Below, piece by piece: positions 10,601 through 13,600 of a stretch of 64,000 bases of DNA. Each line of letters begins with the position of its first letter. Position 1 is the first letter of the stretch. The translations under genes and the position numbers were made by a program. The notes under the pieces are model-generated. The model worked only from the letters and a program-made list of their open reading frames with translations. It did no database searches and was not told where the DNA came from. The stretch is from Salminus brasiliensis (lineage: Eukaryota > Chordata > Actinopteri > Characiformes > Bryconidae), in NCBI RefSeq assembly GCF_030463535.1, contig NC_132900.1:25258456-25322455 (forward strand). The letters run 5' to 3'.

Positions 10601-13600
10601 CTGTAGAACAGTGTGAATGCAGGAGAACACTGTAGAACAGTGGGAATGCAGGAGAACACTGTAGAACAGTGTGAATGCAGGAGAACACTGTAGAACAGTG
10701 GGAATGCAGGAGAACACTGTAGAACAGTGGGAATTTTGTAGAGTAGAAAACTATCAGCACTGTGAATCAACCAGTGCAGTATTACAGCAGTTTAACAGCA
10801 GTATTACGGCACAGGCACGCGTCTGTATGCTCCTGTTAGATGAATAAAGCTGAATTTATCATACAGCACCGCTCACTCTGTGCACAGTGTGTTTAGACAT
10901 ACTATGATATTGTTATTATGTTATTATTTTAATAGAACTCATTCAATCTGTACTGTATAAATATCTTGTTTAACATGTTTACAAAAACGCCTCATCTGAA
11001 TGAAATGCCTCACTGTTCTCCCTGCAGCCGACATTACAGCTCTAAATAAAAGTTATAAATGATGTCCATTTGTCAGCGCTGGTCACTGTGGGGTTTGTTT
11101 ATTTGGTCACTGTGGTTCCTCAGGAAATGAGATAATTCTATCTGCTCGTTTTAGACAGAGAACGAGAGAGAGAGAGAGAGAGAGAGAGCAGTAGTGATAC
11201 AGGGAGCAGCACATAATTTGAACTGAATCCACAGAGACACTGACAGTAAAACCTCTTCCTGGCACAAACTGGCTTTTTTCCCCACAAACATAAACATTTT
11301 CATAGTTTCAGTCCAAAACAACCCCGTCACAGACGCGCGTCCCTTAGCTCTAGCAACACCAGACAGAGTGAGTTAATGCACTCGTTAGAAAGGGTTCTTC
11401 TAAGGTTCTTTAGTAATGGTAACTGAGAGCTCGGTGAACCATTGCAATGCTTAATTATGTGCCTGGTTAAATCCTTTTTTTTTGGCAATAGAACCCTTTT
11501 GGCTATAATAAATACACTGTGGAGAACACTGTAGGAGAGTGTGAAGGGGGAGAACACCCTAGAACAGTGAGAATGGGAATGGATGTTCTAGAACAGAGTA
11601 AACAGAGTAGAGCATTCTAGAACCAGGTAAATGGGAATGGATATTATAGGACAGTGTGAATGGCATGGAGCGAAGCGACAGTTTTCTCAGCAGTGTGAAT
11701 GGCAGAGAACATTCTAGAACAGTGTACATGAAGGACAACGTTCTAGTACAGTCTGAAAGTGAATAAAAGAAAAGATTAGAGAACATTCTAGAACAATGTG
11801 AATGGAGAACATTCTAGAACAGTGTGAGGAGAATATTTTCAATGGTGTGAATACACAAGGACATTCTAGCATGTAAATGAAGGGCAACATTCTAGATCAG
11901 AGGAGAACATTCTAGAACAGTATGGAACAGTGTGAATAGAGAACATTCTAGAACCATGTGGAACACTGTGAATAGTGGAGAATATTCTAGAACAGTGTGG
12001 AACAGTGTGAATAGAGAACATTCTAGAACCATGTGGAACAGTGTGAATAGAGGAGAATATTCTAGATCTGTGTAAATAGAGGAAAACATTCTAGAACAGT
12101 GTGGAACAGTGTGAATAGAGAACATTCTAGAACCATGTGGAACACTGTGAATAGAGGAGAATATTCTAGAACTGTGTGAATAGAGGAGAATATTCTAGAT
12201 CTGTGTAAATAGAGGAAAACATTCTAGAACAGTGTGGAACAGTGTAAATAGAGGAGAATATTCTAGAACTGTGTGAATAGAGGAGAATATTCTAGAACAG
12301 TGTAGAACAGTATAAATAGAGGAGAACATTCTAGAACCATGTGGAACAGTGTGAATAGAGGAGAATATTCTAGAACCGTGTGAATAGAGGAGAATATTCT
12401 AGAACAGTGTAGAACAGTATAAATAGAGGAGAACATTCTAGAACAGTGTGGAACAGTGTGAATAGAGGAGAATATTCTAGAACAGTGTAGAACAGTATAA
12501 ATAGAGGAGAACATTCTAGAACAGTGTGGAACAGTGTGAATAGAGGAGAATATTCTAGAACCGTGTGGAACACTGTGAATAGAGGAGAATATTCTAGAAC
12601 CGTGTGAAACACTGTGAATAGAGAACATTCTAGAACCATGTGGAACAGTGTGAATAGAGGAGAACATTCTAGAACAGTGTGGAACAGTATGAATAGAGAA
12701 CATTCTAGAACCATGTGGAACAGTGTGAATAGAGGAGAATATTCTAGAACTGTGTGGAACAGTGTGAACAGAGAACATTCTAAAACCGTGTGGAACAGTG
12801 TAAATAGAGCAGAACATTCTAGAACAGTGTGGAACAGTGTGAATAGAGAACATTCTAGAACCATGTGGAACACTGTGAATAGAGGAGAATATTCTAGAAC
12901 TGTGTGGAACAGTGTGAACAGAGAACATTCTAAAACCGTGTGGAACAGTGTAAATAGAGCAGAACATTCTAGAACAGTGTGGAACAGTGTGAATAGAGAA
13001 CATTCTAGAACCATGTGGAACACTGTGAATAGAGGAGAATATTCTAGAACTGTGTGAATAGAGGAGAATATTCTAGATCTGTGTAAATAGAGGAAAACAT
13101 TCTAGAACAGTGTGGAACAGTGTGAATAGAGGAGAACATTCTAGAACCGTAGGAAAGAGGGGAGTGTTGTTTCGTGCTGCCTGTAGGACGCTGGGTCAGT
13201 GTGCACTCAGCTTTGGTCACTCACTCTCAGTTAAGTACAGGTGGCTATCCTCCTGCCCCTCTGCCGCCTGATTGGCCAGCTGTCGATTGGCTGTTTCCAA
13301 GCGGTCTGAATTGGAGACAATAACAGATCCACATGAATGAAATATAGAAATACATAAACACAGTACTGCCATCACTGGACTCGTTATATCTGGGCTCTTT
13401 GTGTCTGTAGGGGGGGTCCTGAGAAAGACCCCTCAGGATATCTTTCTCACCTCTCAGGTCGCGGTTGAAGTCGTGAAGACGTCGGATCTCCCCCTCCAGT
13501 CTGATCCGCATGGTTTTATCCAGCGACTCCCGCTTAGAGGAGCTCTTTACCAGACTCTCGTATGCGTCTGAGAGACTGCCCACTTCAGCCTCCAACTACA

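What the first reader, a model, noticed from the sequence alone, without database searches (positions are those of the whole stretch)
11707..13146. Intronic minisatellite made of about 30 perfect heat-shock elements
Seen: almost every 36- or 39-bp unit contains GAACATTCTAGAAC or GAATATTCTAGAAC, i.e. GAAnnTTCnnGAA with the TTCTAGAA centre that HSF1 prefers. By hand I count about 30 perfect triplets in 1.4 kb, plus further GAA/TTC pentamers (gtGGAACAG) and partial sites. Known: HSF1 trimers bind three inverted nGAAn pentamers, and human satellite III arrays recruit HSF1 into nuclear stress bodies. Inference: this amotl1 intron could be a strong HSF1 sink or a stress-inducible enhancer or noncoding transcription unit, analogous to satellite III in a single-copy location.
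Basis: partly seen in the sequence, partly recalled or inferred. Interest (0 to 1): 0.75.

Follow-up and report, generated by a model that had tools for sequence, protein, structure and literature searches.

The report
Dispersed minisatellite carrying heat-shock elements
A repeat inside a fish gene really holds about 30 perfect docking sites for the heat-shock protein HSF1, but it is one of many similar arrays scattered through this genome and nothing in the sequence shows that the docking sites are being kept for a purpose.

Summary
In detail: 30 exact GAAnnTTCnnGAA triplets lie in 11707-13146 (18 GAACATTCTAGAAC, 12 GAATATTCTAGAAC), against a mean of 0.017 in shuffles. GAATATTCTAGAAC is the core of the DNA in published HSF1 and HSF2 trimer crystals, so binding competence is very likely. 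The array lies in a 3,989-bp intron of an angiomotin-family gene, about 74 bp from the donor. The "single-copy" reading is wrong: GAANNTTCTAGAAC occurs 2,550 times in the 1.07-Gb genome against 162 for the reversed pattern, 17% of all 15,060 perfect triplets, much of it in arrays of the same 28-29 bp unit. No sign of selection on the HSE was found: contact bases vary as much as other core bases between arrays (15/270 vs 6/150, p=0.64) and in old edge units. A sister array in the same intron has one triplet. Best reading: an inherited HSE amplified by tandem duplication, a conditional HSF1 platform without shown function. Of interest: 15 of 41 sequences examined have >10 triplets per kb, with no general carrier element found, against a published inference that such clusters do not exist outside Helitrons. 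HSF1 occupancy and heat response were untestable.

The parts
11905..13150 (+). regular HSE minisatellite array (39/36/29-bp units); 27 of 35 units hold a perfect GAAnnTTCnnGAA
11524..11904 (+). older, diverged units at the edge of the same array; 3 perfect triplets (11707, 11781, 11807)
9321..10735 (+). sister array of the same 29-bp unit in the same intron (commonest form GAACACTGTAGAACAGTGTGAATGCAGGA); 1 perfect triplet, at 9482
9236..13224 (-). intron of an angiomotin-family gene (amotl1 by recalled synteny) that holds both arrays; donor GTGAGT from 13224, acceptor AG ending at 9236
   Evidence: flanking coding frames read; Angiomotin_C
13225..13305 (-). exon next to the array ([26 protein letters not shown]...; angiomotin-like by recall)
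15573..16979 (-). open frame with the likely N-terminal coding exon ([24 protein letters not shown]...; angiomotin-family identity recalled, no Pfam hit)
4192..6268 (-). region of three exons matching Pfam PF12240 Angiomotin_C (in open frames 6062-6268, 5456-5743, 4192-4563)

Best explanation
This is one array of a dispersed minisatellite family whose founder unit, about GAACATTCTAGAACAGTGTGAATAGAGGA (28-29 bp), happens to contain a perfect three-pentamer HSE. Copies were seeded at many places; each array then grew and was homogenised by slippage or unequal exchange. Here a 10-bp duplication of GAACAGTGTG made 39/36-bp units, and the HSE version was the one amplified. In the sister array of the same intron, versions with one pentamer broken (CTG or TTG for TTC, GTA for GAA) were amplified instead. 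The HSE density is therefore inherited and copied, not built up by selection for HSF1 binding. What it most likely does: when HSF1 is activated and the chromatin is accessible, HSF1 trimers can sit on these sites, as they do on the same 14-mer in crystals; the effect on the host gene is probably small. Shown: sequence, intron position, family dispersal, no detected HSE-specific conservation. Inferred: HSF1 occupancy, founder state, amplification mechanism, lack of effect.
For: Exact triplets. Same unit and 10-bp duplication visible unit by unit. GAATATTCTAGAAC is in the oligonucleotides of HSF1/HSF2 trimer structures 7DCS, 7DCT, 7DCU (passages). Genome-wide 2,550 GAANNTTCTAGAAC vs 162 reversed; 521 vs 0 for the family word GAANNTTCTAGAACAGTGTG; 206 DNA matches to a 248-base piece with 40 of 299 candidates scored. 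HSE is the majority unit in 20 of 30 arrays and not in 10. No contact-base constraint: edge units 20/135 vs 18/105, p=0.72; loci L009-L028 315/1728 vs 162/960, p=0.40; between arrays 15/270 vs 6/150, p=0.64, and within arrays contact diversity lower in only 13 of 30.
Against: Some arrays are mostly perfect HSE (L061 20 of 21 units, L072 21 of 25, L075 21 of 25, L074 25 of 34; this array 23 of 32 by that reading), which local selection on a few arrays would also give; the pooled tests cannot exclude it. Within the regular part, contact columns carry 3 minor alleles in 9 columns and other columns 7 in 11, a small difference in the direction of constraint. TA between TTC and GAA, counted here as non-contact, also matters for HSF binding, so the contrast is blunted. 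How the unit was dispersed is unexplained; L013 and L017 share a 145-bp, 74% similar stretch upstream of their arrays that was not explained.
Confidence: 0.75

Rival explanations
1. Stress-inducible intronic enhancer or noncoding transcription unit: heat-activated HSF1 binds the array cooperatively, recruits polymerase and changes amotl1 or makes a repeat RNA.
For: 30 canonical sites in 1.44 kb; 21 of 30 with a fourth GAA in phase at +20; one form is the crystallised site; precedent of Helitron HSE clusters that bind HSF-1 and lie near heat-induced genes in C. elegans, one with 96 HSEs (passages).
Against: No HSE-specific conservation detected. The sister array in the same intron has lost the sites. 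Seven papers hold AMOTL1, HSF1 and heat shock (listing only); by title most are about BAG3 or chaperone-assisted autophagy. No listed place of the HSE word or of the family lies within 0.4 Mb of a listed HSP70 match (compared by hand; the listings are partial).
Confidence: 0.15
2. Family-wide HSF1 reservoir: the dispersed arrays together bind a notable part of active HSF1 and tune the heat-shock response, as decoys.
For: GAANNTTCTAGAAC is 17% of all perfect triplets in the genome and about 70% of the excess over the reversed control; clusters of >10 per kb in 15 of 41 sequences examined, which were chosen for HSE or similarity.
Against: No constraint on contact bases detected; in 10 of 30 arrays the majority unit is not a perfect HSE. 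The reversed-pattern count (11,649 against 15,060) suggests that most perfect triplets in the genome are chance sites. Occupancy unknown.
Confidence: 0.07
3. The conserved core is kept for something other than HSF1, such as slippage, recombination or another factor, and the HSE is incidental.
For: Across arrays the most constant stretch is the TAGAAC end of the core (1 array-level deviation in its six positions over 30 arrays), while the first GAA and the TTC vary more. The sister array would by the same reasoning be a 'TEAD array' with 14 GGAATG.
Against: Units were picked by the adjoining spacer, which favours conservation next to it; no specific alternative protein or process was identified (24 recalled patterns, HSE forms included, scanned).
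Confidence: 0.1

Closest known systems
Helitron-borne HSE clusters of Caenorhabditis (PMC6927752)
   Same: Repeats that put many HSEs close together at many genomic places; >10 HSEs per kb (section 9; here 15 of 41 chosen sequences).
   Different: Those lie in annotated Helitrons. Here the 600-bp flanks of 34 array loci share only five short matches of 25-51 bp among four loci; those read look like ends of a Tc1-like MITE (recalled). No carrier common to the arrays was found. Heat response shown there, untested here.
Human satellite III / nuclear stress bodies (PMC9032817 passages)
   Same: Tandem repeat with potential HSF1 sites.
   Different: Satellite III is a pericentric satellite (GGAAU-rich RNA) in megabase blocks; here 28-39 bp units in kilobase-size arrays scattered over many contigs, this one in an intron. 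Transcription unknown.
Three-site HSE of HSF1/HSF2 trimer crystals 7DCS, 7DCT, 7DCU (PMC8379338 passages)
   Same: The 14-mer GAATATTCTAGAAC occurs 12 times in the array.
   Different: A designed oligonucleotide, not a genomic array; the commoner form here, GAACATTCTAGAAC (18), differs from it in one unrestrained base.
Ordinary intronic minisatellites / VNTRs
   Same: Tandem units with indels, a sister array and longer-period copies; many other arrays in this window.
   Different: The unit carries a strong, recognisable transcription-factor site.

Membership tests
Canonical three-pentamer HSE | GAAnnTTCnnGAA with a pyrimidine-purine dinucleotide between TTC and GAA | tested here: met
   30 exact matches, all with TTCTAGAA
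Canonical three-pentamer HSE | bound by HSF1 in vivo | not testable with these tools
   no ChIP data; in vitro the GAATATTCTAGAAC form is in HSF1/HSF2 crystals
Minisatellite | tandem units of 10-60 bp | tested here: met
   TRF period 39, 34.6 copies; spacings 39/36/29; copy-number variation between individuals not tested
HSF-driven regulatory element under selection | HSE contact bases conserved above other core bases | tested here: not met
   p=0.72; p=0.40; p=0.64 between arrays; 13 of 30 within, p=0.21; selection on single arrays not excluded
Satellite III-like array | pericentric megabase satellite of short GGAAT-type units | tested here: not met
   28-39 bp units, about 1.4 kb, intronic, family dispersed over many contigs
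Satellite III-like array | heat- and HSF1-dependent transcription | not testable with these tools
   no expression data
Helitron-borne HSE cluster | >10 HSEs in 1 kb | tested here: met
   23 in 1 kb in the window; 15 of 41 sequences
Helitron-borne HSE cluster | shared transposon ends around the arrays | tested here: not met
   600-bp flanks of 34 array loci: five short matches among four loci only; ends farther out or degenerate not excluded, and L013/L017 share an unexplained stretch farther out
Helitron-borne HSE cluster | Rep/helicase or Helitron termini | not tested
   no dedicated Helitron search was run
Angiomotin family host gene | Angiomotin_C exons on the strand of the intron | tested here: met
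   PF12240 in three open frames, E 8.2e-23, 1.1e-30, 8.7e-17

The most novel reading that the evidence does not exclude
A vertebrate genome carries a dispersed minisatellite family, with no transposon carrier detected, whose unit is a perfect HSE and which supplies up to about one sixth of all perfect three-pentamer HSEs. On heat shock these arrays act as many clustered HSF1 platforms and bring some host genes, amotl1 among them, under heat control: a Helitron-like rewiring of the heat-shock response made by minisatellite expansion.
Probability: 0.15. Interest if true: 0.8.

Novelty: new variant of a known kind. Interest (0 to 1): 0.5.

Why it matters
Dense HSE clusters were inferred not to exist outside Helitrons from a survey of UCSC genomes with annotated Helitrons (PMC6927752 section 9). 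In this fish genome 15 of 41 sequences, chosen for HSE matches or similarity, have >10 perfect HSEs per kb, and no carrier common to the arrays was found. If HSF1 occupies them, tandem-repeat expansion alone would be a route to new heat-responsive sites, and arrays with and without the HSE, two of them in one intron, are a ready-made paired test. If HSF1 does not occupy them, they are a clean natural control showing that perfect motif clusters are not enough.

Tried and rejected
Single-copy origin: rejected by genome searches. Common transposon carrier: 600-bp flanks of 34 array loci gave five short matches among L010, L011, L014 and L059. The wider comparison of the C1 loci gave longer partial matches among L010, L011, L014 and L026, which look like pieces of a Tc1-like MITE (recalled), and one 145-bp match at 74% between L013 and L017, not explained. 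Co-location with HSP70 genes: none within 0.4 Mb in the partial listings (against 30, 46, 65; nearest a lone C1:6068177 match at about 0.45 Mb, then C2:15098048 at about 0.73 Mb). Steroid-receptor site: no RGNACANNNTGTNCY in either array, though AGAACA half-sites abound (68 in A, 38 in B); TEAD GGAATG 14 times in the sister array, kept as a caution (consensus sites recalled). Rfam: no match in the window at gathering scores. Word GAAYATTCTAGAACAGTGTG in viral contigs: none. Paper searches for the unit's words: GAACATTCTAGAAC/GAATATTCTAGAAC forms in 3 papers (one is the crystal paper, the other two not opened), longer unit words in 0. 'Heat shock element' with 'minisatellite': 3 papers. Further listings, of which at most 20 papers each were shown; none of those shown is by title or abstract start a description of this family. 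Other fish could not be searched: the genome tool says this genome has no relatives there.

Weak steps: the spacer-based reading mis-registered some units (the window array, through the 10-bp duplication; the sister array and L059). repairs this and is the one used; L063 (8 units) may still be shifted. All three gave no significant difference between arrays (p 0.66, 0.55, 0.64); within arrays contact diversity was lower in 13, 18 and 13 of 30. The 30 arrays are those with at least 8 units among 42 stretches (40 loci and the two window arrays); 12 were dropped. Of the 40 loci, 20 were chosen by me from the first 100 places of the HSE pattern, all on C1, and 20 from 38 array places read off the similarity listing (18 could not be fetched). 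Both choices favour HSE-bearing copies, so the negative result is conservative. L001-L008 and L029-L058 were not used in counts.

Full report
What is there. Between 11707 and 13146 there are 30 exact GAAnnTTCnnGAA triplets, 18 GAACATTCTAGAAC and 12 GAATATTCTAGAAC; the whole window has two more in this orientation and one in the opposite, and shuffles of the array give 0.017 on average, at most 1. Unit by unit, the regular part 11905-13153 has 35 units at spacings 39 (18), 36 (9) and 29 bp (7); 27 keep a perfect triplet. The basic unit is 29 bp, GAACATTCTAGAACAGTGTGAATAGAGGA; the 39-bp unit is the same with GAACAGTGTG doubled. This puts a further GAA at +20, ten bases after the last GAA of the triplet, in 21 of 30 triplets. 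Older, diverged units run on to 11524.

Where it is. Both this array and a sister array at 9321-10735 lie in one intron, 9236-13224 on the minus strand: donor GTGAGT from 13224, acceptor ending at 9236, with compatible reading phase across it (my reading). The array ends about 74 bp from the donor. Three downstream exons match Pfam Angiomotin_C; the frames at 13245-13595 and 15573-16979 have no Pfam match and are angiomotin-like by recall. A GT10 fucosyltransferase and an ankyrin gene lie in the window; from recall this fits the neighbourhood of human AMOTL1, so amotl1 is the likely name.

The sister array. It has the same 29-bp unit, about 45 copies, but one perfect triplet. Its common versions each break one pentamer: GAACACTGTAGAAC, GAACATTGTAGAAC, GTACATTCTAGAAC. 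The diverged edge units of both arrays resemble GAACATTCTAGAAC, so the HSE form is probably ancestral and was lost in one amplification and kept in the other (inference). In 15 edge units, contact bases differ from the consensus in 20 of 135 cells and other core bases in 18 of 105 (p=0.72).

Can HSF1 bind it? A text search for the core words found the exact 14-mer GAATATTCTAGAAC in PMC8379338; passages show it in the 21-, 23- and 24-bp oligonucleotides, and name HSF2 and HSF1 trimer structures 7DCU, 7DCS and 7DCT. The genome has five HSF DNA-binding-domain matches, found exon by exon. Binding competence is therefore very likely; occupancy in cells is unknown.

Not a single copy. In the window's own genome (1.066 Gb, 103 contigs) GAANNTTCTAGAAC has 2,550 matches against 162 for the pattern read backwards, and the family word GAANNTTCTAGAACAGTGTG 521 against 0. 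A 248-base piece of the array has 206 matches with 40 of 299 candidates scored. All perfect triplets number 15,060 against 11,649 reversed. The TTCTAGAAC form is thus 17% of all and about 70% of the excess; not every such match was shown to lie in this family. This array is 0.2% of the genome's perfect triplets, too little for a sink by itself. I fetched 20 loci from the first listing and 20 from the similarity search. By triplets in the densest 1.5 kb the window array (30) is fourth after L074 (37; 55 in all), L077 (32) and L072 (31); several arrays of the same unit have none (L059, L063, L071). By the densest 1 kb, counting both strands, it (23) comes after L077 and L074 (26 each), level with L075 and L062. 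Of 41 sequences (40 loci and the window) 15 have more than 10 triplets in some kilobase; the loci were chosen for HSE or similarity, so this is no genome rate.

Is the HSE kept by selection? Units were picked by their spacer half, so that the core was not selected. In loci L009-L028, contact bases differ in 315 of 1,728 cells and other core bases in 162 of 960 (192 units, p=0.40). Over 30 arrays of at least 8 units among 42 stretches, 20 have a perfect HSE as majority unit and 10 do not; array majorities deviate at 15 of 270 contact and 6 of 150 other positions (p=0.64); within arrays contact diversity is lower in 13 of 30 (p=0.21). The loci were chosen in ways that favour HSE-bearing copies, so a general constraint should have shown. 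Local selection on single arrays is not excluded: within this array contact columns have 3 minor alleles in 9 columns, other columns 7 in 11.

How it spread. The 600-bp flanks of 34 array loci share only five short matches of 25-51 bp among four loci. Those read look like ends of a Tc1-like MITE (recalled). Farther out, L013 and L017 share an unexplained 145-bp stretch at 74%. No carrier common to the arrays was found; no dedicated Helitron search was run; the route of dispersal is open.

Compared with what is known. HSE-rich repeats exist: satellite III in humans (PMC9032817 passages) and Helitrons in Caenorhabditis (PMC6927752 passages and section 9). [quoted passage not shown] The clusters here are a counter-example unless a Helitron carrier is found. 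The pattern that paper prints for the survey, NGAANNTCCNNGGAN, is not the usual HSE and may be a misprint; if it was really used it would miss clusters like these.

Verdict. Observation confirmed; function as an HSF1 sink or enhancer not shown, and sequence evidence leans towards inherited, unselected motifs. The genome-wide family, with arrays that keep or lack the HSE, two of them in one intron, is the part worth following.

Noticed in passing
window 9457-10734: Sister array holds 14 GGAATG (recalled TEAD core) though none with the fuller RMATTCCW; a reminder that any minisatellite can look like a factor-binding array.
   Followed up: partly
G000:C1:1417048-1569835: GAACCTTCTGGAA (a perfect HSE triplet) recurs, mostly at roughly 3-4.5 kb steps, over about 150 kb, suggesting a large tandem segment or gene cluster with one HSE per unit (listing).
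   Followed up: no
G000:C12:32041957-32076807: Eight full-length HSP70 matches without stops in 35 kb, a tandem hsp70 cluster.
   Followed up: no
L011 (C1:8652500-8656500): A differently built 57-bp unit with GAACGTTCTAGAAC and a second TTCTAGAA half; 14 matches to GAANNTTCTAGAAC, perhaps a distinct branch of the family.
   Followed up: partly
L013 850-1000 and L017 130-280 (as oriented): 145-bp stretch, 74% alike, upstream of both arrays; unidentified repeat.
   Followed up: no
window 1-64000: Many other minisatellites, e.g. 3294-3579 (16 bp), 8163-8994 (71 bp), 13737-14350 (22 bp), 25098-26132 (20 bp).
   Followed up: no
window 33168-33953: Frame on the minus strand with a Tc3-type transposase helix-turn-helix (PF01498, E 1.4e-11).
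   Followed up: no
window 39821-41137 and 46094-46681: GT10 fucosyltransferase and ankyrin-repeat frames on the minus strand; with the angiomotin gene this recalls the FUT4-ANKRD49-AMOTL1 neighbourhood of human 11q21 (recalled).
   Followed up: no
PMC6927752 section 9: The survey pattern is printed as NGAANNTCCNNGGAN, which is not the canonical HSE; possibly a misprint.
   Followed up: no
array positions: Several arrays lie in the outer tenth of their contigs (e.g. C19:0.58 Mb, C5:45.9 Mb, C13:2.75 and 3.06 Mb; lengths), a possible lean towards chromosome ends; judged by eye only.
   Followed up: no
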